Shown: in pieces, positions 1 through 61,189 of the stretch | Layout: each line of letters opens with the position of its first letter | How positions within the stretch are numbered: position 1 is the first letter of the stretch | DNA from: Sternotherus odoratus | Taxonomy: Eukaryota; Chordata; Testudines; Kinosternidae | NCBI GenBank assembly: GCA_032164245.1 | Contig: JAVMKO010000006.1 | Location: forward strand, 103,433,310 to 103,497,309 | Length of the DNA stretch: 64,000 nucleotides | Reading direction: 5' to 3' | The notes under the pieces: model-generated | What the model was told of the DNA's origin: nothing | Seen by the model: only the letters and a program-made list of their open reading frames with translations | Databases searched by the model: none | Position numbers and translations under genes: made by a program

Positions 1-349
1 TGAAGGGCGTGAGGGAGGGGAAGGAGCTCACTGGGGCTGGCAGGGCGGGGGGTGGGGTTTCTGGGGGGGGAGGAGAGGCGGGGGGGGGGGTGTTTCTGGG
101 GCGGGGGAGGAGAAGTGGGCGGGGGGAGGGGGGGGGCGCAGACAGGCCTCCTCTTGGCTCCGGCCCAGTCCCCGCTGGCTCTGGTCCAGCCACTCCATTA
201 GGAGGTTCCCTATAAATAGCTGCTCCACCCCGCCCTGCCTCCCCAGTGCTCCCCGGGCCGGGCGGGAGCCAGCTCCTCCCTGCCGGGCGGCTGGGGGAGG
301 GGGCTGCTCCCTGCACTCGGCTCACCCTCTGCTCCCCCCCGCCCCCCAG

Positions 350-3300
350 CACGGTCTGCAAGCCCCGCTCGCCCCGGCCCAAGGACCCGGCCGCGCCCCC
401 CTTCTCCTCCTCCAGCGGGGTGCTGGGCGCCGGGCTCTGCGAGCTGGACCGGCTGCTGCAGGAGCTCAACGCCACGCAGTTCAATATCACAGGTAGGGCG
501 CTGCCCCCCCCTCCCCAGGCACCGCGGCCTCGGGGCACCGCCGCCCCCTGCTGGGCCGGGACCCGGGCTCCGGGCTCCCCTCCGGGGCACCGCCGCCCCC
601 TGCTGGGCCGGGACCCGGGCTCCCCTCCGGGGCACCGCCGCCCCCTGCTGGTCCGGGACCCGGGCTCCCCTCCGGGGCACCGCCGCCCCCTGCTGGACTG
701 GGATGGGGGCTCCCCTCCGGGGCACCGCCGCCCCCTGCTGGACTGGGATGGGGGCTCCCCTCCGGGGCACCGCCGCCCCCTGCTGGGCCGGGACCCGGGC
801 TCCCCTCCGGGGCACCGCCGCCCCCTGCTGGGCCGGGCTCCGGGCTCCCCTCCGGGGCACCGCCGCCCCCTGCTGGGCCGGGACCCGGGCTCCCCTCCGG
901 GGCACCGCCGCCCCCTGCTGGACTGGGATGGGGGCTCCCCTCTGGGGCACCGCCGCCCCCTGCTGGACTGGGATGGGGGCTCCCCTCCGGGGCACCGCCG
1001 CCCCCTGCTGGGCCGGGACCCGGGCTCCCCTCCGGGGCACCGCCGCCCCCTGCTGGACTGGGATGGGGGCTCCCCTCCGGGGCACCGCCGCCCCCTGCTG
1101 GACTGGGATGGGGGCTCCGGGCTCCCCTCCGGGGCACTGCCGCCCCCTGCTGGGCCGGGACCCGGGCTCCCCTCCGGGGCACCACCGCCCCCTGCTGGGC
1201 CGGGACCCGGGCTCTTCACCATGGCCCTGGCGTGCTCTGTTGGCCTGGGATTGGGGGCACTCCATGCCCTGGCATCGCTGCCTGTGATTGAGAAATACAC
1301 CCTCCCCCCCGCGCCCGGTGGATCCACTTGGTCACTGCAGGCAACTAATGGAGACCTCCGTGTGTGTTTGTCTGTCTGCCTTTCCCCAGACGAGATCATG
1401 TCCCAGTTCCCATCCAACAAGGGCCCGGAGGGGGAGAAGCGGAAGGAGAAGCCGGAGGATCCTGGGGAAGCGGGGTCCCCAAGCCGGTGAGTGAATCTGG
1501 CCGTTGTTCCGTGGGGTTAAATGTCCCGCTGGCTGGGAGTCCAGGCTCAGTGCTGAATGGGGAACACCCCAGAGGTGGCTGCATCTCAGTGCCAGGCCAA
1601 GGATCCCTGTATAATCAGCCCCTGCGCCTCACCCCAGAGGCAGCTGCATTTCAGGCGGGGTGAGGGATTCCTGTATAAAGAGCACTGGGAATCTTTGGGG
1701 GGCCCAATGACCATGCCGTGTCCTTTCCCTCCTAGCTCCTCCGGCTCCACCCCCCCTCCCGTGAAGCCATCAGCCACATCCGCTACCCTGGAGCTAGACA
1801 AGCTCATGGCCTCCTTGTCGGACTTCAGAGTCCAGAGCAACGTGAGTCTGGCACACAGGCACTGGGGGGGGTGAGGCTCAGTCCGGGGTGGGGATTCCTG
1901 GCCCCCGATGGGATCCGATAAGTGTGGGGGTAAACGAGCCAATGAGCGGGGGATGTGTGCAAGAGGAGGGACGTGTGGGGGGGTGAGAGAGAGAGCAGAG
2001 GCTGGTGTGCGGACAGGGGAGAATGTGTGCGCAAATGTGTGCAAGAAGCAGTGAGTGTGCACGCAAATGTGTGTGCATAAATGGGGGTAGAAAAGCGTGT
2101 GTGAGAAGTGTGTGCAAATGGATGTCCACACGAGGGTTCAATTTGTGTCTGAGCACGAGTGTGCAAGCCGCAGTGCAGGCAAACGAGCATGGGAGAGTGT
2201 GTGTGCAAGGGGCAGTGTGTGCAAATGAGTGAGCAAGGGGCACATAAGTGTGCCCGATAATGAGTGGGCGAGTCAGTGTGCAAGGGATCATGGATCCAGG
2301 TGGGCGTGGAAATGCACATGCAAGAGAGCACGCGGGGGAATCCGTTCCTGAGCCCCCAGGGGTGCACACAGTATGTGTGTGCAAGCAAGTGCAAAGGTGC
2401 ATTGGTGGGTGTGCAAATGGGGGTGCAAGAAAGAGCGACCCAGAAGGTGGGCCCGCGAATGTGGAAGGGCCCGCGGCGCCATGGAGCACTGGTACAAGTA
2501 TCTGGGCATGGGTGAGAAACCACAGATGTGGGTGCCAACGGGGGCGATGGGGGCTGTGATCCTGAGTGGCGCACAAGCGGGTGCCCTTCCACGGGGGAGC
2601 CGGTAGGTGTGAGTCTGGGGGAGAGCTGGCAGCCGGCTGGGATCAGAAGTGGCCTGGCAAGATCACCCATGGGGTGGGCAGCTGACTCTGCCTGTCCCCT
2701 GCTTAGAGCTGCCCTACGGGAGCCCCAGCCCTGGGCCCATCCCTGCCCTTGCACCAGCCCACACTCTGGTATGTGGTTCGGCCTGGCCTGCCGTGTGGTG
2801 CCGGGGTGGTGGCATTGGTCTGGGCGTGGTGATGCACAAGGCAGCGTAAGGCTGTGTAGCTGGCGGGGGCGGCGCTGCCTGGCGTTAGGTATTGGATCGC
2901 ATGGCATGGTGCAGCCTGGCGCGGCCCGTTTGGCCTGGTGAACAGGTGAACATGGCAAGTGCCCGGTGGAACCGGAATGGGTGCGGCGCTGTACGCCGAG
3001 GTGTTAACAGATGACCTGGCGTGGTGCCTCGTATCCCAGCGGCTGGGTACAGCCTAGTGCAGAAACCTGTATTAGCCTGGCATGGCATCCCCTGGCGCGG
3101 CCTGTGGCATGGAGTGGATTGGGGTGGCATGCTCTGATCGGCCCTGGCGTGGCGGAGGCTGTGGCCAGGTCTGCGGTGGTTGGCATCACGCCAGGCACAG
3201 AGAGTGGGGGGCAGGGAGTTAGTTGTGGCCATGGGGCAGGGACGGGCACAAGTTGGTGTTCTGGGTCATTCCTCGGGCGGGGGGAATGAATGGGTGCGAC

Positions 3301-6300
3301 TGGTGCTTTGTGGGACAGTTTGGTGTCGTGTGTGGTTGTGGCTCCCGCAGGGCCGTACAACCCTGCCCGGTGCCCATACCAATGCCCGTGTGGCGGGCGC
3401 TGCATCGCTCTCCACCCTGGGGCACGGCGTGGCGCTATCTCGCCCGGTCGCCGTTTGGGGTGCGTCTCGGCACCTCCCATCACAGCCGGTTCCCTTCTAG
3501 CTCCCGGGGGTCTCGGTGGCGCCGCCCCCGGCCCCCGCCCGGGTCTCCCTGGCGCAGCAGCCGGTGGTGTCGTCCGTCTGCCCCAGCCCCTCCGGGCCGC
3601 CCCCCGCAGCAGCGCCGGCCCCGCAGGGGGGCAACTTGGACAGCATGCTGGTGATGCTGCAGTCGGATCTGAGCCGCCAGGGGATCTCCACCAGCACCAA
3701 GGGGCTGTGCGCCTCCTGCCAAAAACCCATCGTGGGGCAGGTGGGTACAGGACGGGGGGCACCCGGGGTGGGGGAAGGGAAATCAGGGAGGTGGGTACAG
3801 GACTCAGGAGCTGCGGGCGGGGGGTGGAACAGGGCACTTTGAGAGCAATGAGGGGCAGGACTGGGGAGCGGGCAGAAGTGGATTAGGGGAGGGATTGATT
3901 GGGGAGGGGGCGGGAATCGTTTTGGTAGGGGGAGGGGCAGATTAGGAGAGCAGGTGGGAGATGCGGGCACAGCGTGGGGGGGACAGTGCAGCATGGGGGG
4001 GGAGAGAGGAGGAGCACCGGGTGTAGGGTGGGAGGGGGAGGGGAGGCAGGTCAGGGGAGGCGAGGCAGGTTGGGGAAAATGGGGGGGGGGAGGAAGGGGC
4101 CTGTGAGGGGGGGGGGTCTAGGACTGGAGAGAGGAAAGGGAGGGGCCAGTGTGGGAAGGGGGAAAAGGGAGGATCTGGGTCTTTTCTCATCTGGGTAATG
4201 GGTGTGCGTTCCTCCACCTATCTGTCCATCTGTCTCCCCCTGCCCCCCGCGCCCTGCCCAGGTGGTGACAGCGCTGGGCAACACCTGGCACCCCGAGCAC
4301 TTCGTCTGCACCCACTGCCAGAAGGAGATGGGGGGCAGCAACTTCTTTGAGAAGGATGGCGCCCCCTACTGCGAGCGGGACTACTTCCAGCTTTTCTCGC
4401 CCCGCTGCGGCCTCTGCAACGAGCCCATCCTGGATGTGAGTTGGCCACGCAGTGCCCATCTGGTGCCCTTCCCTCAGAGCACAGTGCAGTGCAGGAGAAT
4501 GCCGTGACACACAGTGCAGTGTGAGAGAGCGCAGTGCCACGCAGTGTTATGGAATGTGAGAGCATAGTGCCACACAATGCAGTGTAGTGTAAGAAAGCAC
4601 AGTGCCATGCAGTGTTATGAAGTGTGAGAGCACAGTGCCACACAATGCAGTGCAGGGGAAGAAAGCACAGTGCCATGCAGTGTTATGAAGTGTGAGATTA
4701 CAGTGTCACACAACGTGATGCAGTGTTACAGTGCTGTGCAGTACCTTGTAGTGTGAGAGTACAGCGCAGTGTTAGAGCACGCCATGACATTTAGTGTGAG
4801 AGTGCAGTTCAACACAATTCAGTGCAGTGTTAGTCTAGTGCCACACAAGGCAGCACATTGCAAAAGTGCACCCTTGGTGTGAGACAGCACAATGCCACAT
4901 AATGCAGTGAATGCAGTGATACACAATGTGACAGAGCACTGTGCCACATGCTGCAATGCAGCACTGTAGAGTGCAGTGCTATATTCTGTGGTATAGCACT
5001 ATAGAGGGTAGTGTGAGCAATGCAGTGACTGAGTGCAGTGAAACACAATGCAATGCAGTGCTGCATGTAGTGACTGCATGAAGTAAGACCCAACAGTGTG
5101 TGCGGTGGGGTTATAGAATGCAATGCACTACCTGCACTGTTATGACATGCAGTGTAGGGCTGCAGATTGCAGTGCAATAGAATACAATGCACCAACATAA
5201 AACAGACCAGTACAGATTGCCAGTGCAGTGCTAGAGAATGCAGGGCAGTGCCTCAGAAAGCAGTGTGAAGCTATGGGATGCAGTGTGCTATGATGCAGGG
5301 TGACACAACAGTACGTGGGACAGTGCAGGGCAGTGCAAGGTAACCTAAGGCAGTGCAGTGCCACCAAGGGAACGAAAGCTGCAGACGGCAGAGCAGGGCT
5401 GCCCAGCGCAGTGTACTGCAGTGTCACGCAGTGTTAGGTCCCTCCAATCCTCGATCTGGGAGCCAGCCTGACCCCGCTCTGCTGTGAGAACCCCCACTCC
5501 TGGGCTGTTCACGCACGGCCTCTGGCATTAAGCTGCTCCTTGGATTGTGGACCCGAATGACACTAGCCAGTATCTCCGGTCACAGACACAACCCCGGGAA
5601 CCTCTGTCTTGCCGTGTCTAGTTCTGCCCGCCGGAGGCTGCAAGCTTAGATGAGTTCGTCAGTTTAACAAAGAAATTGAGACGTACCAAGCCTGCTATCC
5701 CCAGGGGAGTCTCTGACACCCCCCAAACCAAATGCACGGCTTCAGGTCGAATCAACCAACTGATTTATGAACTGTAAAGATAGATTTCAAGTGAGTATAA
5801 GTCAAAACATAACAAGTCAGATTTGGTCAAATGAAATAAAAGCAAAACGCATTCTAGGCTGATCTTAACACTTCCGGTGCCCTTACGAACTTGGAGGCTT
5901 CTCACCACAGACTGGCTGGTTGCCCTTCAGCCGGACTCTCCCCTTTGATCAGCCCTTCAGTGGCTTGGGGGTGATGTCTGTAGATGATGGTGGGAGAGAG
6001 AGAGAGAGAGCATAGCAAACCTCTCTCCCTTTTATCATGTTCTTTCTTCCCTCTTGGCTTTGCTCCCCTCCCCCTTCAGAGTCAGGTGAGCATGACCTCA
6101 TCGCAGTCCCAGACTGACCAAGGCAAGGGGGGTGACTCACTTGAGAGTCCAATTGATCCTGTGTTGCTGCCTAGGTCAGTGTCCTTTGTTCCTGTGAGCT
6201 GGGCTGGGTTTGTCCCATAGGTGCCCTGATGAGGTGTGAACTGCTCCTCTGCTCTTGGAGAGTTTTTGCCTGAGCTCATTTTAAGCCACGAAGACCCATT

Positions 6301-8531
6301 TTGAGCCTCGTGACCATATACATGAAATTATAATTTATATCATGATTACTCTAACAACAATGACTTTAACATCACAATGACAACAATGCTCAGTGGATCG
6401 TGAGCCTTCTGAAGACACCCCATCATGACACGGGGGTGTAGGGTGTTCCCACGAGGTCCAGACCGTCAGCCTCACCCGAGATGGTACAGGCAACTCACAG
6501 TTCTCAATACACCGGCTGGATTCCCTTTCCAGCTTGGGACCAATCTCCCCGGTTCAAAGTCTTTGTCTTCCAGATGCTCTTGCAGGTGTTGAGATGGGGG
6601 AGGAGAGAGGCCAAGTGATGATGTCACGGCCTCCTTTAGACTTTCCTCCAGCTGCCAGAATGATCCTTGCTTTGATGTGGGTTCGGCGCCTCTCTGAGGA
6701 GCCTCTGGGATGGCCCCTGGAAGAGCGGATTCCCCATAATGGGCCATCAACACATGTCTGGCTGGTCCCGATGTAAACCTGTACTAGGCCCCTCTTTGTT
6801 GCCACTGACCGGCGGGCTGTGGACGATTCCCAACCTCGCCACGATTTCCACTAACCCACCCGTGGCAAAGCTTCCTCCCTTCAGATCCAAGGATAACACG
6901 TCCAATCCAACGGGAGATCAACGTTCAATGGCCCAAGACGTCTTCAGTGATCCCTCACATGCGTTGTACAAAACACTGCACCATCCTATCGCAGTGGTGA
7001 ATGGGGGGAGGCGGGGCGGGGAGGGGGTGTTATTTTGCGGTACAGAGTGTCACACCCTGAGTTTGTCCCTTCCAGAAAATGGTGACGGCTCTGGACAAGA
7101 ACTGGCACCCGGAGCATTTCTGCTGTGTGAAGTGCGGGAGGCCCTTCGGGGAGGAAGGTGAGTGAGCGCCCCTGCCCCACTGCACCCCACATCTGAGGGG
7201 ACCCAGGCTGCACCCCAGTAACACTCTCCAGGAGACCAGTCCCCCAACTAGCACTGCCCCCCACTGCCGGACAGAGAACAGCACCCCCAACAAGCACTGC
7301 CCCCCACTGCATCCTCTCTGTGGGGGCACCCAGACCCCCAGCGTGCAGTGACCCGCCCCGCCCTGCTGCAGTGCGGCCGGTCACTGAGGCGCTCACTGGA
7401 CCCTGCTCTCTGTCCCCCCCCACAGGCTTCCACGAGAAGGACGGGCAGCAGTACTGCCGCCAGGACTTCTACGAGCTCTTCTCCACCCGCTGCCAGGGCT
7501 GCGGCCAGGCCATCCTGGAGAACTACATCTCGGCCCTCAGCGCCCTCTGGCACCCCGAGTGCTTCGTCTGCAGGGTGAGCCGCCCCGCCCGGGCACAGCG
7601 CCGCGGGGCGGGAGGGGAGGGGACAGTGGGGGGAGGGGGCGGGGCCGTGTTGGGGGAGGAGGGACTGTGTTGGGAATGGGGGAGGGGCACTCTGGGGGAT
7701 GGGGGGAGTGTCGGGAGTAGGGGCAATGTGCAGTGTGGGGGAGGGGCAGTGCAGAGGGAAGGTGCAGTGGGGAGAGGTGGGGGATGGGGAGGAGCAATGG
7801 GGGGAAGGTGGCAATGCATGGGGGTGGGAGGTTGGGGGACAGTTCTGGGGGATGAGGGGAGGGGAGAAGGGGAGGGGCGGTTTGGGGGATGAGGGCAGGG
7901 GCTGGGTGGAAGGAGGAGGGGCAGTTTGGGGGGATGGGGGAGAGGGCCGAGGGGGAGTGAGAGGGGGAGGGGCAATGGGGGGGATGAGGCAGTGGAGGGG
8001 GGTGGAAGGGGAGGGGCAGTTTGGGGGGATGGGGGAGAGGGCCGTGGGGGAGTGAGAGGGGGAGGGGCAATGGGGGGGATGAGGCAGTGGAGGGGGGTGT
8101 AAGGGGAGGGGCAGTTTGGGGGGATGGGGGAGAGGGCCGTGGGGGAGTGAGAGGGGGAGGGGCAATGGGGGGGATGAGGCAGTGGAGGGGGGTGGAAGGG
8201 GCAGTTTGGGGGCAGCGTGTGGGCGGTGCTCGCGCGCACTCACCCCCCCCGCCCCTCCCCCCAGGAGTGCTACGCCCCCTTCCTGCAGGGCAGTTTCTTC
8301 GAGCACGCGGGCCGGCCCTTCTGCGAGACGCACTACCACAAGCAGCGGGGCTCGCTGTGCTGGGGCTGCGAGAAGCCCATCGCCGGGCGCTGCATCACCG
8401 CCATGGCCCGCAAGTTCCACCCCGAGCACTTCGTCTGCGCCTTCTGCCTCAAGCAGCTCAACAAGGGCACCTTCAAGGAGCAGAACGACAAGCCCTACTG
8501 CCACCCCTGCTTCCTCAAGCTCTTTGGTTGA
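350..8531 (+). CDS. TGFB1I1: TGFB1I1 (Hic-5), LIM-domain focal adhesion adaptor, 3' eight exons
   Basis: Paxillin-family scaffold of focal adhesions that also acts as a nuclear receptor coactivator. Exons read from splice sites: 350-492, 1390-1486, 1736-1841, 3501-3740, 4262-4435, 7076-7157, 7426-7574, 8265-8531 (stop TGA 8529-8531); all phases agree. LD motifs are visible: ELDRLLQEL in the first exon, [12 protein letters not shown] in the third, [13 protein letters not shown] in the fourth. Four LIM domains follow with the expected Cys/His pairs ([32 protein letters not shown]) and the chain ends FLKLFG as in Hic-5. The N-terminal part (TVCKPRSP, then SSSSGVLG, then [12 protein letters not shown] across the first junction) identifies TGFB1I1 rather than PXN, although the last LIM domain is very paxillin-like. 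The first exons with the initiator Met lie upstream of the window. No canonical AATAAA was seen close after the stop. Introns hold minisatellites and a retroelement, described separately. Confidence 0.95.
531..1213 (-). repeat. 45-bp minisatellite with a CTCF core motif in every unit
   Basis: About 15 tandem 45-bp units fill the intron after the first visible TGFB1I1 exon. Two unit types alternate, differing after the motif (GGCCGGGACCCGGG or GACTGGGATGGGG). The + strand reads GCCGCCCCCTGCTGG in each unit, which on the minus strand is CCAGCAGGGGGCGGC, matching all 15 positions of the general CTCF core CCASYAGRKGGCRSY; the last unit has T for the final C and still matches. 45 is a multiple of 3, so all frames stay open, but this is not coding. 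Whether CTCF binds is inference. Confidence 0.9.
1556..1690 (+). repeat. Dispersed repeat with AGAGGTGGCTGCAT motif, copy 1
   Basis: Two roughly 60-bp units built around CACCCCAGAGGTGGCTGCAT followed by a CCTGTATAA segment. The same unit occurs at 9540-9660 and 18590-18735, so it is an interspersed repeat family of this genome. Lies in a TGFB1I1 intron just before the exon at 1736. Class unknown. Confidence 0.6.
1884..2560 (+). repeat. Degenerate GTGTGCAA-rich tandem repeat in TGFB1I1 intron
   Basis: Diverged tandem copies of short words such as GTGTGCAAATG and TGTGTGCAAG run through this stretch. The rest of the intron to 3480 is rich in GGCGTGGCATGG-type words without clear units. No gene seen apart from the candidate exon at 2709-2768. 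Confidence 0.6.
2709..2768 (+). other. Candidate cassette exon of TGFB1I1 (60 nt, phase 0)
   Basis: A pyrimidine-rich tract and AG precede 2709, and CTG|GTATGT follows 2768. The 60 nt read without stops as 20 codons ([10 protein letters not shown] then [10 protein letters not shown]) in the phase 0 required by the flanking exons ending at 1841 and starting at 3501. The proline/serine-rich composition suits the spacer between LD motifs. The AG two bases earlier would give a frameshifting 62-nt exon, and I know no such exon in mammalian TGFB1I1, so this is a prediction only. Confidence 0.35.
4440..5430 (+). repeat. Diverged CAGTGCAGTG tandem satellite in TGFB1I1 intron
   Basis: Nearly 1 kb made of variable units of about 40-60 bp with words such as GAGAGCACAGTGCCA, CACACAATGCAGTG and GCAGTGTTATGAAGTGTGAG. 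Units are most alike at 4500-4700 and decay to the right. It starts straight after the donor of the exon ending at 4435. Confidence 0.7.
5450..7000. mobile_element. LTR-retroelement-like insertion (degenerate), in TGFB1I1 intron
   Basis: A stretch of different composition (AT-richer, no tandem structure) separates the satellite from the exon at 7076. Blocks around 5650-5960 and 6370-6640 resemble an interspersed element I recall as common in turtle genomes and of LTR type. No gag, pol or env reading frame is intact, and I could not place LTR ends or a target-site duplication. Class assignment is from memory and uncertain. Confidence 0.4.
7600..8215 (+). repeat. G-rich repeat array with 95-bp units in TGFB1I1 intron
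   Basis: The intron between the exons ending 7574 and starting 8265 is almost entirely G-rich. From about 7920 a 95-bp unit repeats at least three times with near identity (units beginning near 7920, 8015 and 8110). Long runs of G separated by one to three bases make G-quadruplex formation plausible on the + strand. Confidence 0.8.
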
Positions 8532-9540
8532 GCCCCGCCCCTGTCCGGACAGGCCCCGCCTCCCCGGCCCAGCCACACCCCCAAGAGGCCCCGCCCCGCC
8601 CAGCCACACCCCAAGAGGTCACGCCCCCCGGCCCGGCCACACCCCCAACAGGCCACGCCCCCAGACCAGTCACACCCCCAAAAGGCCACGCCCCTGCCAA
8701 GCCACATCCCAACAGGCCACACCCCTGGCCCAGCCACACCCCAACAAGCCCCGCCCCTAGCCTAGCCATGGCGGGCAAGCCCCACCCCACCCCAAAGCCA
8801 TGTCTCAGCAGGCCCTGCCCTGGGCACATTCACGCCCCGGGACGTGGCGCCCCACGGCAAGGCCACTCCCCGGCAGGCTCCTTACCTGGCATAGCCACAC
8901 CCGCCATCTCTGAGTGGGGGGGGGGGGGTGGAAAGGCCGTGGCCCCCCGCACAGCCATGTCAATCAGTGCCAAAGGCTGGGGAAGCCACGGCTCCCATGC
9001 CGACCTAGGAAGCCCCGCCTCTTTCAGAGCCACACCCACAACGGGCAGGGGGCACCTTTCTGCCATTCCTCCCCTGCTGCTGATAGGTCCTGCCCCACCA
9101 AGCCGCCTGGAGGCCCCGCCCCCCTGCTAAGCAGAATTTGAACACAGGGGACGGGCACTGGCCATGGATCACCTGGTCCAACAGGAAGACATGGCCGGGG
9201 GGCGGGGGGGGGGACAGAGAGGAAGGGCCACCAGGCTAAGGCCTGACCTCAATGGGGTGGGGCTGTCTGGGCTAAACCCTGACCCTGGGCACAGGAAAAG
9301 GGGGCGTGGCTTAATCTTCCAAAACTCAGGTTGAAATGCCATAGGATCACAAAGTGTCTTCAGCTCTGGGGGGTGGGGAGTGGGGCAGGTGGGAGATAAT
9401 TGGGGGGGGGGGGAAGGGGAGAAAGGGGTTTATTACAAGCACAATTTATATTCATGCTATTTGTTGCTGTTGAAACACAGTGCGGGGCGGGGGGTCTCTC
9501 CAGACCATCACCACCAATCCTCATCTCCAACGCTACATGG
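8532..9540. other. TGFB1I1 3' flank with CCACACCCC/CCCCGCCCC tandem words
   Basis: From 8532 to about 9130 the sequence is a string of degenerate ~20-bp words (CCCGCCC, CAGCCACACCCC, AACAGGCCACGCCCC), which may form the 3' UTR. No AATAAA found here. From 9130 to 9540 there is no recognisable gene. Confidence 0.6.
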
Positions 9541-9660
9541 CTGTTAAACAGCCCCTGCGCCCCACCCCAGAGGTGGCTGCATTGCAGTGCCAGGGTGAGG
9601 GCTCCCTGTATAACCAGCCCCGGTGCCCCGCCCCAGAGACAATGGGGTGGGGAATAGGCT
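9540..9660 (+). repeat. Dispersed repeat with AGAGGTGGCTGCAT motif, copy 2
   Basis: Same family as 1556-1690: CCCCAGAGGTGGCTGCAT, then a CCCTGTATAACCAGCCCC segment, then the start of a second unit. 9660-10297 after it holds three short CCTTTCCC(C/T)...AGGGG words typical of another dispersed family (9668, 9955, 10030) and no gene. Confidence 0.6.
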
Positions 9661-10297
9661 CGGAGGCCTTTCCCCTCTAGGGGGTGTTGGTGTGGGGAGG
9701 GGTGATCGCCTGCTTACGGGGCCCCCCGCTGTGTTTTATTTTGCTTTTTAGACACTCAGTTACGCCGGCGCGTGGAGTATTTATTGTCACGTCTGGGCTC
9801 TTTGAAGGAGCGTTCACGGCAGCACTCCGGGCGCGGTTCCAGCTTGGAGGCAGGAGCGGGAAGAGGGACGAGCCGGAGCGTCTGGGGGCCGGGAGTAATG
9901 GGTCCTGGGGTGGGGGGAGGGATTGCAGGCAGAGCTTGTAATGAGACGCAGGCCTCTCCCCTTTAAGGGGCACCAGCTCTGATCCATTCCAAGCGCTGGC
10001 TGGCGCAACCCGTGGGCAACGGGCCGGGGGCCTTTCCCTCCTAAGGGGCGCTGGTCCCAGGTTACTTGCTGGGGGAGCAGCCCGGGGTGGGGGTGGGAGG
10101 GGGGCTATTCTTGCTGAGTTAGGATTGTATCAGGGTCACAGATTTTTTTGTTTCCTTTTACTGTATCAGCCCAAAATGCTTCTTCACTCTCACTGCTGGC
10201 AGGTGCCCAGCGGGCGTTGGCACTCGCGGGTCATTTCTACCCGGCGCGCGCTCACTGCTGTATCCCTGGGTATTGCCGAATTAAAGCCACGTTTGAA

Positions 10298-10580
10298 TAA
10301 CACTGTGTGTGTGTGTCTGTGCATACGTGTGTGTGTATCTCTGTGTTGTGTGTGTGTGTGTGTGTGTATCTCTCTGTGTGTGTGTGTATCTCTGTGTTGT
10401 GTGTGTGTGTGTGTGTGTGTGTATGTATCTCTGTGTGTGTGTGTGTGTGTATCTCTGTGTGTGTATCTCTGTGTGTATCTCTGTGTGTGTGTGTGTGTGT
10501 GTGTGTATCTCGGTGTGTGTGTGTGTGTGTATGTATCTCTGTGTGTGTGTGTGTGTATCTCTGTGTGTGTGTGTGTGTGC
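10298..10580 (+). repeat. (TG)n / TGTGTATCTC microsatellite
   Basis: Long TG dinucleotide runs interrupted at intervals by TATCTC. The long open frames of alternating Cys/Val on one strand and His/Thr on the other are artefacts of this repeat. 10590-11230 after it holds no gene I recognise. Confidence 0.95.
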
Positions 10581-11247
10581 GCGAGGGGGTGAGGGGTATC
10601 AGAGATCGGCCTTTCCAGCCACATTCCCCTTGTTACTTGTTCCAGCTCCTTAGTCTTCCCTGGAGCCTCGCGGGACAATGTTCTCCTCCAGGGCAATCCA
10701 TGGGGGGAGATTCGGAGTCCGAGGCCAGAAGAGGCCGTTGTGAGCCTCTCATCTGAGCGCCTGCACAGAGCAGGCCAGAAGCGCCCCCGAATAATCCCCA
10801 GAGCAGGGCTGTTCCGAATGGGGACGCCTGGATAGACAGAGGGGCCTGCGTGGGGATGGAGAGCAAAGTCAGGGTGGTTTGGTGGCTTGTAATTGGGGTT
10901 CCCGAGGCCACGATACTGAGGAGATCGAAACCAGCAGCCAATCACCCGGGGACTAGAGGAGGCAGAATCTCACCAGCCCTAGATCCGGATCAGAGCCAGC
11001 ACCCCCCTCGATTCCTAGCGGGGAGGCCAGCTTCCCCGCAAACCAGCCTGGCTTTCCTTTTGGGGGTGTGTGTGTGTGGGGGGGCTACATCTCCCCTAAG
11101 CCTCCCCTCCCCGTGCCCTTACAGAGGGGAAGTGCCGAGCCAGAGAGCTCAGGTGGAAGCGGGGGCACGTCCTCCTGCCCTGCCCGACTCTCCGAATATA
11201 GAGCTGGCTGCCGCAGCCCCCCGTACCCCACATGGGCTTCTCCATGC

Positions 11248-11455
11248 AGCTCTCGGACTCTCCTTCGGGGTCTGGGACACCGGCTCTCGGACTCTCCTTC
11301 GGGGTCTGGGACACCGGCTCTCGGACTCTCCTTCGGGGTCTGGGACACCGGCTCTCGGACTCTCCTTCGGGGTCCGGGACACCGGCTCTCGGACTCTCCT
11401 TCGGGGTCTGGGACACCGGCTCTCGGACTCTCCTTCGGGGTCTGGGACACAGGGC
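11248..11455 (+). repeat. 34-bp minisatellite
   Basis: Six tandem copies of a 34-bp unit containing GGCTCTCGGACTCTCC and GGGGTCTGGGACACC. Because 34 is not a multiple of three the unit passes through every frame, which explains overlapping open frames on both strands. 11460-12060 beyond it is unique-looking sequence with no gene I can support. Confidence 0.95.
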
Positions 11456-22310: not shown

Positions 22311-23754
22311 CATGGGGGTGGGGCTTGGTTCCCACAAGGGGGTGCAGCAGCAGAAGGACCTTCTGTGTGGCAGAGATGTCCGGATGCAGAGAGGGGGGCA
22401 GGGTCCTACCGAGTAGGAGTAATGTGGATCCAGCAGGGGGCGGAGCCCAGCCCTTCCCCTCCCCCCAATGCCAGGGAGCCCCCTGGCTCTCTCGGTTCTG
22501 TGGCATTGCTCCTGCTATGGTGAAGCAACAGAGCCATGGAGGGAATTGTGTGGGGTGAGCATCTGAGTCCCTCCAGAGGACTGAGTTGTAAGGGGGAGTC
22601 CCCTGTGGTCCATCTCTACTGGAAGGAGCAAACTGGGAGGGCAGGGAGCTGGATTATGGGGGTGAGTGGGTTGGGGCTAGTGGAGGGGGGAAAGCAGGGT
22701 GCCTCAAAGCGGGGGGGGGGTACAGATCCCCCTCCCTTCTGAGCCCGGCCCCCACTCCAGTGGGGCTACGCCACTGTGGCTGAGAATCAGTGGAAGAGGC
22801 TGACTAGGAGGCAGGGACCTTGGAGCTGGTTGTGAGCAGGTACTGGGGACTTCAATCCTGTTTCCTCGCCCTTGTGCTGATTCCCCTGCACTGGGGGTCA
22901 CAAGGGAGCCCAGAAATTGGGGCCCCGTGTAGCATGGTGGATTTCCCAGCAGGACGATTCCCGCAAGGCTGGGTCTGTGGCGGAAGAGCAGAGGGGGGAA
23001 TGGAGAGTTGGTGTTGCCCATAGGGCAGTGTGGGTATGAAGCTCCCCCCGACCGGCCTGGGGGGGAATCCTGGTGCTGGGTGGAGAACAGATGGTACTTC
23101 TCTGTTTGAGGGGGCAAAAAAAACCCCATAGCCGGACTCCGCTTTGTCTGAGTGGTCTCTGCAGCGCTGACCGTGGGAATGCCCTCTGTGCAAAGTGCCC
23201 TGCGATCGGTCGTCTCCCCCTCCACCCAGCAGCCACCCTTAACCCTGGCAGGCCCCATCCCAGCCGGAGGTTGCTGGTTCTGGACCTTCCTCTCTGCTCC
23301 TTCCCCTCTCCTGGGAGCTGGGTGGGGAGTGGGAGGATGCTGCGAACTGGGGGGGCTGCAAAGACATGCTTTCACACAGGGAGGGGCAGCCCGGCTCCTC
23401 TCTCTATGGCGCACGGCTGCTGGCTCAGGAGCCCGGTGCCAGCCAGGGAATGTCCCCTCCTGGGACCAGAGCAGCCAGCGAGGATTCCCAGAGCCCAGCT
23501 CGTCCTGCCCCGTTCCCAGCAGGCACCTGGCCATGCTCTGGTTCTGGGCTGGGTGATCAGTATCGGCCCCTAGGGATAAACCCTCTTCCCCATCCCCAGA
23601 GCCTCCCCTGCAGGGAGTAGGAACAGCTCCATCTGGCCTGTGTCTAAAGGATTTGAGGTAGTAGCAGAGAGAATCAATCCTTAGTCCAGACACAGACCTG
23701 AAGGGAAAATCAGGGTCTGGAGGAATCTAGTAGAGCTTCCGCTTGCCTTGTTGT

Positions 23755-26554: not shown

Positions 26555-27175
26555 GTCCAGAGAGCCGGGACTCCTGGGTTCTATCCCTGGCTGGGGGTGG
26601 GGGCTGGGAGCCGGGACTCCTGGGTTCTATCCCTGGCTGGGGCTGGGAGCCGGGACGCCTGGGTTCTATCCCTGGCTGGGGGCGGGGGCTGGGAGCCGGG
26701 ACTCCTGGGTTCTATCCCTGGCTGGGGGCGGGGGCTGGGAGCCGGGACTCCTGGGTTCTATCCCTGGCTGGGGGCGGGGGCTGGGAGCCGGGACTCCTGG
26801 GTTCTATCCCTGGCTGGGAGCCGGGACGCCTGGGTTCTATCCCTGGCTGGGGCTGGGAGCCGGGACTCCTGGGTTCTATCCCTGGCTGGGAGCCGGGACT
26901 CCTGGGTTCTATCCCTGGCTGGGAGCCGGGACTCCTGGGTTCTATCCCTGGCTGGGGGCGGGGGCTGGGACTCCTGGGTTCTATCCCTGGCTGGGGCTGG
27001 GAGCCGGGACTCCTGGGTTCTATCCCTGGCTGGGGGTGGGGGCTGGGAGCCGGGACTCCTGGGTTCTATCCCTGGCTGGGGGTGGGGGCTGGGAGCCGGG
27101 ACTCCTGGGTTCTATCCCTGGCTGGGGGTGGGGGCTGGGAGCCGGGACTCCTGGGTTCTATCCCTGGCTCTGGGA
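26555..27175 (+). repeat. Minisatellite derived from a MIR-like SINE head, array 3
   Basis: About 15 copies of a 32-46-bp unit: GGGAGCCGGGACTCCTGG, GTTCTATCCCTGGCTGGG and a variable GGGGCGGGGGCT spacer. Two copies share GACGCCTGGG instead of GACTCCTGGG. Located in the first intron of gene B, just after its donor. Confidence 0.9.
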
Positions 27176-27530: not shown

Positions 27531-30500
27531 ATGGCTGCCCAGGTGTCTCCCCCGGCCGCTCTGAGGCTCCACTTCCAGCCCCCGCCGGGGTGCGGCCTGG
27601 TTCCCAAAGAGGAAGCGGAGGAGCCGGATGCCCGCGGACCCGTCGCCATGGAGATGCATCGTCTGTGCTTCCGGGGGTTCCGCTACCAGGAGGCTGAGGG
27701 GCCCCGGGAGGCGTTTGGCCACCTCTGCCGCCTCTCCCGGGCGTGGCTGAGGCCGGAGCAGCGCTCCAAGGAGCAGATGCTGGAGCTGCTGGTGCTGGAG
27801 CAGTTCCTGAGCATCCTGCCCCAGGAGATCCAGAGCTGGGTGGGGGGGTGTCACCCCCAGACCGGGGAGCAGGCCGTGGCTCTGGCAGAGGGTTTCCAGT
27901 TAGCCAAGCAAGAGCCTGGAAAATGGCCGCAGCAGGAGGTAATTTACGGCTGTGAAATCATTAGGGAGTGGGGCACCGGGCCTTTCCCCGCTAGGGGGTG
28001 CCAGATCCGATCCAATCCCAGTGCGGGTATTGATTGGCTGGGCGAGGGGGGGATGGGGACACGGGACCTTTCTTCTCTGTTAGTAGAGCTACTGGGGGAA
28101 AATATTAGTGGAGATGATTTTTTTGATGAAAAATGCCCATTTTGCCCAACCAAAATTGTCCTTGGGGGGAAAAAATTTCAGTTTCATGGGAAAATTTTGA
28201 TTTTTTTCCTGTTGGGAAAAATCTCAGTGTAGGCTCCTCCACCCCCTGCCCGCAAGTCTCTCCTCATGGTCACTTTCCGCCAGTGAAATTGACAAAAAAC
28301 TTTCTGGGAGGGCTGCCTGGATGAAAACCCCTCACTCCACACACCTCGCTCTGGGACTGGAGAGGAAGAGAACCCAGGCGATCGATCCCCCACTTCCTGG
28401 AGCGGAGCAGGAGGCGGAGAGTCGTGGCTGCCAGCCGGGAGCTGTGGGCAGAGGCCGTGAGGTGGTCTGGCTGGTGGCTGGGAAGCTGAAAAACTTCCTC
28501 TCGGTTCTCCCTGAATAGGTGTTTCTTTTAAAAACCCTTCCTCAGAAAAAAGCTGCTTTAAAAAAAAAATTAACCCCCAAAAGCCGCAACATTTTTGCCA
28601 GGCAGGGATTTCCCTTGTCTGGCCAGCTGTGTTCGCTGATGGGGAGCGAGGGGTCTGTGGTTATCAGCACTGATAGGGGCGCCTTTGTTGTTCCAGGAGC
28701 CGGTGACGTGGGAGAAAGAGGCTGCGTGTTCCTCCGGGACAGAGCGGGCAGTGCCGGCCCCAGAACATGGCAAGATCTGCAGGGAGATTAAGGAGGAGGA
28801 GGAAGAGACTCTGATCTCACCAGGTGGGGAGCTGCTTCCCCACAGGGTCAGGAGCTCGGGGGCTGTGATGCGCCTGGGCTTTGGGTCAGGGCTCTTTCTG
28901 GGGGATCAGCCCCTGGATTCTTTCCCGTGATGACGGGGGGTTAACTCCTGTCAGCCACTCAAGTGCCCCCCCTCCAGGCTATGCCAGCCCCTGGCTCTGC
29001 CTTGCAGGTTAACAAGAGGTGCCCTCCAGTCCCTCTGGATTGTTCTCCCGCAAGATCCAATCCCTGACGCTGGCTACTCACTGAAATCCCAGATCCTCTG
29101 CCCTAGAGGAGCAGGGTGCCCCACGTTGCTAAATTTACCTTCTGTTGCTGCTGCTCTGAAGTCCCCCAGTCCTTGCGAGGGCTTCTAATAAAACAAAGCA
29201 GGGTTATTGAAGAAACGGTAACGATGGAGCTAGAAATGAAGGAGTGGGAAGGAAACGGGGATACAACACAACAAAATCAGGACATGTGCCCCAGTGTACA
29301 CTTGTGGGCGCCCCCTTTCCCCCCATTAAGTCTGTTGCAGAGCTGGCGTGTTTCACAAGAACCAGGATCCAGATGTTTGTGAAAACACACCTGCTCCACA
29401 AGGGGCTTCCTTGTGAATGGATCCAGGCGACCTCTCCCTCCTCTGTGTTATGCTGAGCCGGTCTTTTGTTTCTGTTTATAGCACGAACCCCTGTCATGTC
29501 ATCCGCTCCTGTCGGGGGGCAGGATAGCTCAGTGGTTTGAGCGTTGGCCTGCTAAAGCCAGGGTTGTGAGTTCAATCCTTGAGGGGGCCACTTAGGGAGA
29601 TGGGGCAAAAATCTGTTGGATAATTTAATTGGGGATTGGTCCTGTTTTGAGCAGGGGGCACTAGATGATCTCCTGAGGTCCCTTCCCACTCTGATATTCT
29701 ATGTTTTAACGTTCCTTTGTTTACCTTCCGGTGCTTTTGATTGTTTGCAGTTGCTTCTGGTGGCTTTCCATGGATGGTCTAAGCCTGATCTCCACTAGAC
29801 AATTAGGTCCATTTAACTATGTCGGAGAGGGTGTGAAACACCCCCCCCCCCCCCCGATAGACATAGTTCAGCTGATCTAAATCCCTGTGTAGCCAGTGCT
29901 AGGCTGACACAAGAATTCTGCCATTGATCCAGCTACCACCCGGAGAACCTCTCCCACCGGCGTAGGGAGTGTCTACACTGAAACGCAGCTATGCGGCTGC
30001 AGCATTTGAAGTGTTGACAAGACCTCAGGGTTGCACAAGGCTAAACAGTTGAGCTGGCTAGGCCGGGCAGGGGAGCAACAGCCACTTGCCTGAACGGGCC
30101 ATCCCCAAGACTTATCCCCTGGTGACTAAGGGTAGGTCTTCACCGTAGCCATCGATCTTCTGGCGATCGATTTCTCGCGTCTTATGAAGACGCGAGAAAT
30201 CGATCGCTCGCGGCACCCCTGTCGACTCCGGAACTCCAGCTTGCCAGGAGGCGCAAGCTGGAGTCGACGGGGGAGCGCGCCGCCGACTGCCCCCACCATG
30301 AGGACGAGCGGTAAGTCGGCTGCGGATACGCAAACTTCAGCTACGTGAATCGCGTAGCTGAATTTGCGTATCTGCAGTCGACCCCCCCCGTAGTGGAGAC
30401 CAGCCCTAATTTCTAATCAAAGTCCTATAGTGTCCTGTGAGTGGAAAGATGTTCTTCCTTAAATCTTACCTGTATGTACATCTCACAATGGTTATGACTC

Positions 30501-31998: not shown

Positions 31999-32290
31999 GG
32001 AAGGAGGGGGACGTTGGCACGGGGCGGGAACGGAGGCTCCTGTGGAGAGGCCCCCTCCCCGCCAGGGGGGACCCTCACAGGACTTCGGGGGAACCACCGT
32101 CCCGGAGAGCAATATCGAGGCCTGGGTGTGGGAGAGCGACAGGGAGACGCTCGCCGGAGAGGAAGCGGGGAAGAGGCTGAAGGCTCCGCCTCTCTTCTAT
32201 GGGTATTATTTGTACTTCGGTGGCACTTAGAGACTCAAGGCTGGAGGACGGGCCGCCTCGGGGGCAGGGCATGGGACATGGGGCTTTTCC

Positions 32291-32305
32291 CCTCTAGGGG
32301 GCGCC
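32291..32305 (+). promoter_or_regulatory. CTCF-like motif within a dispersed repeat
   Basis: CCTCTAGGGGGCGCC differs from the CTCF core consensus at one position. The same word family (CTTTCCCC.CTAGGGGG) is present in weaker form at 9668, 27988 and others, so a repeat has spread it. 32000-33130 otherwise holds the gene B 3' UTR and no gene. Confidence 0.4.
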
Positions 32306-32691
32306 AGCTCTGGCCCAGCCACAGGATGGAGGGACGGGCTGGCTCAGCGGTTGGAGAATGGAGCCTGGCGCCTGTCCCCCGGGCCCCTTAAAATGTCCTT
32401 TGTCGTCTTCGCAAACGTTGGAGACCTTCCGTCCCCCGGGGACCAGTTCCTTAATCGCCTTTACGGCTGGACAGACGGACGCTTCCAGGCAGGGGGAGCC
32501 CGTCTCCTTCTCCCCAGCCCTGTCTCCAGCACCCGGCTCCTCCACGGGACGTGTGGAGCTCAGTGGCAGCCGGGGACGTCCCATCCTGGCTCCCAGGCAT
32601 CGGGCCAGCCCCCCTCTGGGCTCTCGGCTCCATCTTGGCTCTGCTTTCTCCCTGGGTGATCAGGGGCTGTTGTCCCACTGCAATAAAGAAG

Positions 32692-35500: not shown

Positions 35501-36100
35501 TGGCCTCATCAGCCACCGGGGGGCGCCCCAGAGCCCCCCCGCAGTAACATGGGGCACAGATTCAAGTAGCCCCCAGAGTTTTCCCCAATCCCCCCCCCGG
35601 GGGGGCCTTTCCCTCCCTGCTGCCTGCGGGGGGCTGGCGCTAAACAACGGGGCCCGGGCTGCGGACGGGGGCGGCGCTGGATGCAGCCACCTCTGGGGCG
35701 CGGCGCGGGGGCTGTTTTTGGGGGGTCCCTCCAGCCCCCCCCCCGGTCGGATCTAGCGGGTTAAAACCATAGAGCCGCCCGCCGGGGGAAGGGGAGGAGG
35801 CAGCGGAGGGAGCCACTTCCTGCTGCAAACCCCCCCCCCCCGTCCCGGAGCTCGGCCGCCGCAGGGCGGAGCGCCCCGGGCCGGCACGTGGGGCACCGGA
35901 TCCGGGTAGAGCCCCCCCCCCCCCGCCGCTCCCCCTCCGCCCCGGCAGCCCCGACCCCCCCCCCCGCCCCGCAGCCCGGACCCCCCCCCCCCCCCCCTCC
36001 AGGCGCAGGGGAGAGGCGGCCCCGGGATTGAAACAGCGACAGAGGCAGCAAATCGCTGCCTGGAGCCAGCAACCAGGGCGAGGAGGCTGGGCTGGCAGGG
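35500..36100 (+). promoter_or_regulatory. CpG island, likely promoter of gene C
   Basis: Dense CpG and C/G homopolymers at 35560-36030, with an E-box CACGTG at 35885 followed by GGGGCACCGG. The block GAGGCAGCAAATCGCTGCCT (36042) recurs as GAGGCAGGAAATCGCTGCCT upstream of gene F (57381), so the two genes have related 5' regions. Exact first exon not determined. Confidence 0.55.
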
Positions 36101-39550: not shown

Positions 39551-40069
39551 CCACTCTACTGCCATTTTCAACCACCCTTTCATCCCTGCCACCCCCATCC
39601 TGCTGCTGCAGCCAGGTTGGTGCTACCCCAAGATACCCGTCTCCCAGGCCTGCGCTCTGGCTGCTGCCGCCCAGGACCAGGGAGGGGAAGGGGCACCCGG
39701 GCAGCAGCCATTTTACTATCTCTTGGGCCTTTTCCAACTGGGGAGGGAATTTGGAACAGGCAGGGGAGGGGCATCCATGAGCGGGGAAAACCTCAGGACA
39801 GGGGGAGAGGCCGGCAATGCGGGTTCACCAGAGTCAGGGCTCGGCCCGAGCGCCCAGGGCCGCCTCCAGACGTCTGTGATGGACGGGAGAGGCCCGGCCT
39901 TTGGTTTAGATGCCGGCCGGGCCCCCCCATGGGGTAGGTAGATTGCAACCCCATTAGCGTAGCACGTGGGGCACTGACCTAAAACACTGACCCACAGGGG
40001 AGCGGGCCCCCCACTGACCCCCCCCATCCCGCCCCCTGCAGGCAGCACCCTCCAGCACCGACAGGGGAG

Positions 40070-40185
40070 AGCGCCCCCTTCTGGCCCCCTGCCGCACACC
40101 CTGGGGAGCGGTGGGGCGGGGCAGGGGCGGGGCTCATTCATTCCCCGCTGTAACGGGATTGGCTCCGGGTGACACACGTGGGGAG
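40070..40185 (+). promoter_or_regulatory. Promoter of gene D with a CTCF-like site
   Basis: On the minus strand, 40070-40084 reads CCAGAAGGGGGCGCT, one mismatch from the CTCF core. Then come two GC boxes (GGGGCGGGGCAGGGGCGGGG, about 40112-40131), an inverted CCAAT (GATTGGCTCC, about 40155) and an E-box CACGTG at 40175, only 6 bp before the ATG at 40186. The 5' UTR must therefore be short or begin further upstream. No TATA box. Confidence 0.6.

Positions 40186-43665
<3,480 letters not shown>

Positions 43666-57668: not shown

Positions 57669-61189
<3,521 letters not shown>

What the first reader, a model, noticed from the sequence alone, without database searches (positions are those of the whole stretch)
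531..1213. Fifteen-copy tandem array of CTCF core motifs inside a TGFB1I1 intron
Every 45-bp unit carries GCCGCCCCCTGCTGG on the + strand, so CCAGCAGGGGGCGGC on the minus strand, a full 15/15 match to the CTCF core consensus, all in one orientation with fixed 45-bp spacing. Tandem same-direction CTCF arrays are rare and known ones (for example DXZ4-type) act as strong boundaries. Here the array sits at the edge of a KRAB/SCAN zinc-finger cluster. Motif match is seen; binding and boundary role are inference. CpG dinucleotides in the motif would make binding methylation-sensitive.
Basis: partly seen in the sequence, partly recalled or inferred. Interest (0 to 1): 0.85.

Follow-up and report, generated by a model that had tools for sequence, protein, structure and literature searches.

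The report
CTCF-site minisatellite in turtle TGFB1I1 intron
A short, GC-rich stretch of repeated DNA inside a turtle gene carries fifteen same-facing copies of a strong landing site for the genome-folding protein CTCF; it is real, but it is one of many such repeats in this genome, and whether it does anything has not been shown.

Summary
Confirmed: window 540-1198 holds 15 same-direction CTCF cores on the minus strand, 14 identical and the 15th one base different. All score 18.1-20.6 of 26.1 on a recalled CTCF matrix. Spacing is 45 bp in 12 of 14 steps and 52 bp in 2. The array lies in an 897-bp TGFB1I1 intron, 47 bp after an exon.

Three things change the picture. (1) The window starts at a 200-N gap and its first 11.4 kb repeats the sequence before the gap (97.5%), so the second array 11.7 kb upstream is most likely the same locus assembled twice. 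(2) Such arrays are not rare here: the core occurs 4,901 times, with 351 same-strand pairs at 20-50 bp gaps, and at least four other core clusters lie within about 100 kb upstream. (3) Cores are not better conserved than spacers overall (7 of 14 arrays, p=0.29), so selection is unproven. The motif's CpGs are at positions 12 and 15, not at the inhibitory position 2.

Best reading: an intronic minisatellite forming a clustered, one-way CTCF (possibly CTCFL) site, a new member of a known kind (human CTCF/BORIS-bound VNTRs). Binding and boundary function are untested.

The parts
350..492 (+). TGFB1I1 exon with the LD motif ELDRLLQELNATQFNIT
   Evidence: Translation and splice sites; Pfam Paxillin on the joined exons; turtle orthologues contain the same peptide
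493..1389 (+). TGFB1I1 intron (GT...AG), 897 bp, containing the array
   Evidence: Splice junctions read directly; turtle orthologues P0121-P0127 join the two flanking exons without it
540..1198 (-). 15 CTCF core motifs (CCAGCAGGGGGCGGC; the last CCAGCAGGGGGCGGT), 45- or 52-bp period
   Evidence: positions; matrix scores 18.1-20.6 in 15 of 15
563..1214 (.). 45-bp minisatellite as delimited by TRF, 14.3 copies
1390..1486 (+). next TGFB1I1 exon (DEIMSQFPSNK...)
1736..1841 (+). following TGFB1I1 exon (LD motif LELDKLMASLSDF)
1..11445 (.). stretch that repeats C6:103421570-103433109 across a 200-N gap ending at the base before window position 1; most likely an unmerged contig overlap
   Evidence: 97.5% identity; 95 substitutions, 68 indel events (42 in homopolymers), 200 N; boundaries flush with the gap on both sides
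22427..22445 (+). single CTCF-like site, 16.8 bits, forward
32288..32306 (+). single CTCF-like site, 17.7 bits, forward
35510..35528 (+). single CTCF-like site, 18.0 bits, forward
40027..40087 (-). two CTCF-like sites 42 bp apart, 17.5 and 19.7 bits, reverse
59628..59646 (-). best single CTCF-like site of the window, 24.4 bits, reverse
27582..27956 (+). SCAN domain open frame of the zinc-finger cluster
   Evidence: Pfam PF02023 1.1e-36
41169..41336 (+). KRAB box open frame of the zinc-finger cluster
   Evidence: Pfam PF01352 1.2e-22

Best explanation
The array is an intronic GC-rich minisatellite that grew by tandem duplication of a 45-bp unit containing a strong CTCF core. Shown: 15 same-direction cores, strong matrix scores, a locus-specific unit, and other minisatellites with mostly unrelated spacers carrying the same core in the same genome. 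Inferred: when open, the array is bound by several CTCF molecules at once (or by CTCFL/BORIS, which has the same sequence preference and occurs in reptiles). It then behaves as one clustered, one-way cohesin stop facing lower coordinates, that is, towards the TGFB1I1 5' side and away from the zinc-finger cluster. Its expansion needs no selection: mutation plus the abundance of CTCF cores is enough to explain it.
For: 15 of 15 units score 18.1-20.6 bits against 0.014 expected at 18 or more. The exact unit 23-mer occurs 23 times in the 1.76-Gb genome, all in this array (13) or its upstream copy (10). The CTCF 15-mer occurs 4,901 times against 114 for the reversed control, so it is used or spread widely in this genome. 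Same-strand pairs: 351 for 4,901 sites against 2 for 114 control sites (Fisher p=0.024; few control pairs). Units of 36-84 bp recur with mostly unrelated spacers. In human, CTCF and BORIS co-bind mostly simple tandem repeats that form clustered sites (171 repeats; PMC5007689, sections 6 and 7 and passages), and the paired sites of the TSP50 promoter lie 58 bp (human) and 33 bp (mouse) apart (PMC4562119, passages).
Against: No binding, accessibility, methylation or contact data for this species. Core columns are not reliably better conserved than spacer columns: higher in 7 of 14 arrays, combined p=0.29 (0.084 for the 13 arrays, which left out C3:880k, where the core is worse). In the window array it is 0.995 against 0.923, but that ranks only 6th of 45 rotations. 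In the upstream copy only 11 of 15 cores reach 15 bits, though that copy ends at an assembly gap. The unit also resembles ZIC, INSM1 and SP-type sites (recalled, not scored).
Confidence: 0.6

Rival explanations
1. Neutral GC-rich minisatellite: the core was in the founding sequence by chance or from a dispersed motif, and the array is methylated or nucleosome-covered and does nothing that matters.
For: Many minisatellites in the window (79 TRF rows, many overlapping); no consistent conservation of the core (7 of 14 arrays, p=0.29); GC-rich arrays without a CTCF hit of 15 bits also exist (L053, L054); array CpG observed/expected 0.53 against 0.48 for the whole window, so no clear mark of an unmethylated island.
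Against: 15 of 15 cores intact in the window copy; CTCF cores are tandem about four times more often than the reversed control (weak control, two pairs only).
Confidence: 0.3
2. Strong boundary: the leftward-facing array, with rightward-facing sites at 22-36 kb and leftward-facing sites at 40-60 kb, separates the TGFB1I1 domain from a loop that encloses the zinc-finger genes.
For: Window sites of 16 bits or more outside the array are three forward (22427, 32288, 35510) then three reverse (40027, 40069, 59628), a divergent-then-convergent order; a forward cluster lies about 36 kb to the left (-35566 to -34776; about 24 kb if the assembly overlap is collapsed); tandem CTCF sites act as insulators in Pcdh and beta-globin (PMC7087399, passages), and most clustered mouse sites co-localise with cohesin (PMC6945661, passages).
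Against: The order has a 1-in-20 chance of arising at random (by hand; the threshold was chosen after seeing the sites); to the left, sites of 16 bits or more face both ways (8 forward, 3 reverse in about 50 kb); mouse minisatellite Ds-TR sits in a boundary region yet shows no CTCF along its repeats, only at its promoter (PMC4539712, passages); no Hi-C.
Confidence: 0.3
3. Germline alternative promoter: CTCFL/BORIS binds the clustered intronic sites and starts a short TGFB1I1 transcript.
For: In mammals BORIS turns intronic clustered CTCF sites into promoters (PMC10832218, passages); BORIS exists in reptiles (PMC2515639, abstract).
Against: In the bearded dragon BORIS is widely expressed rather than gonad-limited (PMC2515639, abstract); CTCFL was not located in this genome because did not complete; no CAGE or RNA data.
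Confidence: 0.12
4. Polymerase roadblock: CTCF bound 48-706 bp after the exon slows Pol II and favours inclusion of that exon.
For: CTCF within about 1 kb downstream correlates with exon inclusion (PMC8373115, passages); the first core starts 48 bp after the exon end; of 17 predicted reptile proteins printed, three (P0130, P0188, P0237) lack or alter the LD exon.
Against: The exon peptide is intact in the other 14 of those 17, and gene predictions are not splicing data; the same review says CTCF enrichment was highest upstream of alternatively spliced exons in one study (PMC8373115, passages).
Confidence: 0.1
5. Retained-intron coding repeat: the intron is 897 bp, a multiple of three, and open in the exon's frame, so retention would add 299 residues.
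For: Uninterrupted read-through translation.
Against: The intron is 79% G+C, which leaves other frames nearly open too; the 52-bp units shift the frame inside the array; none of the 120 listed homologues (of 122) covers more than 25% of the read-through query; the upstream copy has indels.
Confidence: 0.02

Closest known systems
Human CTCF+BORIS co-bound simple tandem repeats (VNTRs), PMC5007689 (sections 6, 7 and passages)
   Same: Short-unit tandem repeats in which the units supply CTCF cores so that the array forms a clustered site; many loci in one genome
   Different: There binding was shown by ChIP in K562 cells; here only the sequence is known, in a turtle, and the cores are near-perfect 15-mers
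Clustered CTCF target sites (2xCTS), PMC4562119 (passages)
   Same: Closely spaced motifs (33-58 bp in the TSP50 promoter, 45 bp here) expected to give one ChIP peak
   Different: Described there as two or more sites with variable spacing and orientation; here 15 in one orientation from a minisatellite
DXZ4/Dxz4 macrosatellite (PMC4539712, passages)
   Same: CTCF-bound tandem repeat
   Different: Units of about 3 kb (human) or 3.8-5.7 kb (mouse), X-linked and tied to X inactivation; here 45 bp on a chromosome whose sex linkage is unknown
SVA VNTR (PMC5007689)
   Same: GC-rich VNTR with CTCF-like motifs bound by BORIS
   Different: SVA is a dispersed retroelement; the unit here is confined to one locus
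Protocadherin-type tandem CTCF sites (PMC7087399, passages)
   Same: Many CTCF sites in tandem
   Different: Those belong to separate promoters and enhancers of a gene cluster, not to a minisatellite

Membership tests
Minisatellite | Tandem array of near-identical units of roughly 10-100 bp | tested here: met
   TRF period 45, 14.3 copies, 90% match
Minisatellite | Variation between alleles or copies | tested here: inconclusive
   The two assembled copies both have 15 units but differ in unit order and sequence; whether they are alleles or one allele with errors is not known
Clustered CTCF/BORIS repeat (2xCTS-type VNTR) | Two or more CTCF motifs close enough for one peak | tested here: met
   15 motifs, 45-52 bp apart, all 18.1 bits or more
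Clustered CTCF/BORIS repeat (2xCTS-type VNTR) | Occupied by CTCF and/or CTCFL in chromatin | not testable with these tools
   No ChIP data for this species in the tools
Clustered CTCF/BORIS repeat (2xCTS-type VNTR) | CTCFL gene present in the species | not tested
   Seven genome searches with the CTCF zinc-finger domain did not complete; BORIS is reported in at least two reptiles (PMC2515639, abstract)
DXZ4-type macrosatellite boundary | Kilobase-scale repeat unit | tested here: not met
   Unit 45 bp
DXZ4-type macrosatellite boundary | CTCF motif in each unit | tested here: met
   15 of 15 units
SVA-like retroelement VNTR | Unit dispersed with a mobile element | tested here: not met
   Exact 23-mer only at this locus and its upstream copy; the DNA search gives 14 further matches, all at 64-75% identity (that search skips very common words)
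Methylation-switchable CTCF site | CpG at motif position 2 on the motif strand | tested here: not met
   CpG at positions 12 and 15 only
TAD boundary / insulator | Drop in contacts across the element | not testable with these tools
   No Hi-C

The most novel reading that the evidence does not exclude
In this turtle genome CTCF (or CTCFL) sites are repeatedly and independently converted into minisatellites, and the TGFB1I1 neighbourhood is a hotspot. At least five core arrays or clusters with unrelated spacers lie in about 134 kb (C6:103.30-103.434 Mb), four of them (the array included) facing one way, against 11 found in the other 1,029 Mb of C1-C6 listed. CTCF/cohesin binding itself, through replication stalling or germline breaks, or selection for many-copy anchors, could be driving tandem duplication and so making tunable, copy-number-variable boundary elements.
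Probability: 0.12. Interest if true: 0.75.

Novelty: new member of a known kind. Interest (0 to 1): 0.42.

Why it matters
If bound, the array and its many relatives would be natural, copy-number-graded, single-orientation CTCF anchors outside mammals. They would allow direct tests of how many CTCF sites a polar cohesin stop needs, and whether CTCF binding promotes birth of minisatellites. If not bound, they warn that perfect motif arrays in GC-rich genomes do not by themselves mean boundaries. The assembly overlap matters too: anyone counting this array in the reference would count it twice.

Tried and rejected
Rejected: a second, truly duplicated TGFB1I1 array. The duplication is flush with a 200-N gap on both sides, so contig overlap or the two haplotypes explains it better. 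A true tandem duplication with a gap inside is not strictly excluded.

Rejected: a dispersed repeat family as source of this unit. The 23-mer is locus-specific, and the two best other DNA matches (L053, L054) are GC-rich minisatellites with no CTCF hit of 15 bits or more (best 14.4 in L053).

Tried without result: a selection test on core against spacer; core higher in 4 of 9 arrays (a tenth locus, C5:28676k, gave no row); 7 of 13, p=0.084; it left out C3:880k (core 0.867, spacer 0.966) and the upstream copy (computed but not summed), and C6:103398k gave no row. One search put C3:880k back: 7 of 14, p=0.29. C4:114144k was never fetched. Two overlapping gap classes cannot show a preferred period, because multiples of short periods fall into the second. 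Quadruplex runs: 0 on the G-rich minus strand and 1 on the plus strand by a strict pattern. Rfam found nothing at gathering score in the window. PMC8282625 was read in passages as a possible precedent; the passages seen concern ordinary CTCF sites and the INS VNTR. Genes to the left of TGFB1I1 were not identified; ORFs were listed only. The ZIC/INSM1/SP resemblance was not scored.

Full report
What is there. The window is G000:C6:103433310-103497309 of a 1.76-Gb genome. An exon at 350-492, an intron at 493-1389 and exons at 1390-1486 and 1736-1841 encode the LD-motif part of TGFB1I1 (translation; Pfam Paxillin 3.5e-11). The top seven of 120 listed homologues are turtle proteins (Caretta, Malaclemys, Chrysemys twice, Pangshura, Chelonoidis, Chelydra), so 'turtle' stands. 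Some residues (KDPAAPP, GPEGE) differ from the hidden-necked turtles printed, which may point to a side-necked turtle; that is inference.

The array. Fifteen cores lie at 540-1198. Fourteen of 15 are identical over 15 bases and the last differs by one base that the degenerate core allows. Twelve of 14 steps are 45 bp and two are 52 bp. Two main unit types alternate irregularly (GGCCGGGACCC... and GACTGGGATGG...). Outside the array the window has six sites of 16 bits or more; a first-order Markov model gives 1.3 per 64 kb (30 simulations). Inside, the model gives 0.014 sites of 18 or more per 683 bp (500 simulations). The units are copies, so the surprise counts once: about 1e-4 per random 45-bp unit of that composition.

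Assembly. The base before the window is the last of 200 N. The 11.54 kb before the gap (C6:103421570-103433109) match window 1-11445 at 97.5%, with 95 substitutions and 68 indel events, 42 of them in homopolymers. Both ends of the duplication are flush with the gap, which fits two contig ends that were not merged, or two haplotypes. The upstream copy of the array also has 15 units, with a different order of unit types and with small indels or a substitution in four cores (units 6, 10, 14, 15); 11 of 15 score 15 bits or more. If the two are alleles, unit order varies between them; if not, part of this is sequencing error.

How unusual. The unit's 23-mer occurs 23 times in the genome, 13 here and 10 in the upstream copy. 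The core itself is common: CCASYAGRKGGCRSY occurs 4,901 times, its reversed control 114 times. Same-strand pairs 20-50 bp apart number 351, control 2; uniform placement would give 0.2. Per site that is 7.2% against 1.8% (Fisher p=0.024), so CTCF cores are tandem more often than the control motif, but the control has only two pairs and pairs within one array are not independent. The tool lists only the first places: to C6:103.42 Mb and C6:103.434 Mb, so the rest of C6 and C7 onward are counted but not seen. Within the listed part, arrays or clusters of three or more cores, counted by eye, are at C1:3.414, C1:4.306, C1:294.647, C2:0.725, C3:0.880, C4:114.144, C5:0.829, C5:105.428, C5:106.399, C5:107.417 and C6:100.238 Mb (43 copies of a 40-bp unit), and near this locus at C6:103.337, 103.351, 103.365 and 103.398 Mb. 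Their spacers are mostly unrelated, although several share a TCCCAGCAGGGGGCGCTGTGGGG-like context, so not all are independent of an older dispersed sequence. A separate dispersed repeat carries two cores about 55 bp apart at five places on C1-C5.

Hotspot. Five arrays or clusters in 134 kb against 11 in 1,029 Mb gives a Poisson tail of 5e-17. That figure is post hoc, rests on counts by eye, and ignores that GC-rich chromosome ends are rich in minisatellites, so it shows strong clustering but not its cause. In that stretch the arrays at 103.337, 103.351 and 103.365 Mb face the same way as the TGFB1I1 array, and the 103.398 Mb cluster faces the other way.

Is the core under selection? Aligning each array to its unit gave core/spacer identities of 0.995/0.923 here and 1.000/0.920 at C6:103.337 Mb, but lower core than spacer identity in seven of 14 arrays; combined p=0.29 by rotation. 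My earlier run without C3:880k gave 7 of 13 and p=0.084. GC-rich minisatellites without any CTCF hit of 15 bits also exist (L053, L054). So conservation gives no support for function. A mispredicted Pelodiscus TGFB1I1 protein contains GGPLRGSAGPCSAG at this intron, alike to one unit read in one frame (30.8 bits; 0 of 60 shuffled-unit controls reach it, maximum 25.0). A unit-like sequence may thus be older than the split from softshells. Its peptide (...PCSAG) would not encode the intact core (inference).

Mechanism. Motif direction is the minus strand, so by the convergent rule (recalled) the array would stop cohesin arriving from lower coordinates. Window sites of 16 bits or more to the right run forward, forward, forward, reverse, reverse, reverse (22427, 32288, 35510; 40027, 40069, 59628), which would let the zinc-finger region (zinc-finger runs from 21.2 to 61 kb, SCAN 27.6, KRAB 41.2; five of seven open frames sent carry C2H2 fingers) form its own loop; the chance of this order is 1 in 20, by hand and with a threshold chosen afterwards. 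To the left, eight sites of 16 bits or more are forward and three reverse. In mammals, tandem sites insulate (PMC7087399, passages), clustered sites hold cohesin more often (PMC6945661, passages), and simple tandem repeats with CTCF cores are co-bound by CTCF and BORIS (PMC5007689, sections 6 and 7 and passages); BORIS can turn intronic clustered sites into promoters (PMC10832218, passages). BORIS is reported in reptiles (PMC2515639, abstract). CTCFL could not be looked up here because the searches did not complete.

Methylation. The core has CpGs at positions 12 and 15. Motif-strand methylation at C2 is the dominant inhibitory mark; full methylation of a site with CpGs at C2 and C12 gave about 7-fold weaker binding (PMC10325916, passages).

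Literature. The listings (20 of 649 papers; 7 of 7; 15 of 50; 10 of 1,679; 10 of 110) showed no paper on CTCF-core minisatellites in turtles or other reptiles; only titles and abstract starts were seen, most matching papers were not listed, and only open-licence papers are held. DXZ4, the tRNA VNTR of 1q23.3 (PMC4041453, listing only) and SVA are the nearest published repeats that I met, and the human CTCF/BORIS VNTR class already covers the kind.

Verdict. A real, high-scoring CTCF-core minisatellite and a new member of a known kind. It is duplicated in the assembly, is not rare in its genome, and is not shown to be bound or selected. The unexpected part is how often minisatellites with unrelated spacers in this genome carry the same core, and how many lie beside this one.

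Noticed in passing
window 1-11445 and C6:103421570-103433109: Unmerged assembly overlap across a 200-N gap; gene counts and repeat counts here are doubled.
   Followed up: yes
C6:103.300-103.434 Mb (L049, L055, L056, L015): Cluster of CTCF-core minisatellites with unrelated spacers (45-, 42- and 69-bp units and a forward four-site cluster) upstream of TGFB1I1.
   Followed up: partly
C6:100237300-100240500 (L050): Largest CTCF-core array seen: about 43 copies of a 40-bp unit, 42 hits of 15 bits or more, one orientation.
   Followed up: partly
C1:136.17, C2:203.28, C3:145.35, C4:42.99, C5:69.59 Mb: Dispersed repeat with two CTCF cores about 55 bp apart (CCAGCAGAGGGCGCT or similar), not near contig ends.
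   Followed up: no
window 493-1389: The intron is a multiple of three long and open in the exon's reading frame; probably chance in 79% G+C DNA.
   Followed up: partly
window 33138-34310: A second 45-bp minisatellite, 26 copies at 96% match, with no CTCF-like site of 10 bits or more.
   Followed up: no
window 53381-55042 and 59825-61189: Two zinc-finger open frames share identical CTCF-like matches and a 12-bp repeat at nearly the same relative places, so they look like duplicates.
   Followed up: no
window 26880-27037: ARAGORN calls two overlapping tRNA-Pyl genes inside a GC-rich minisatellite; surely spurious.
   Followed up: no
P0130 (Pelodiscus sinensis TGFB1I1): The predicted protein lacks the LD motif and contains translated intron, including a peptide like one repeat unit.
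   Followed up: partly
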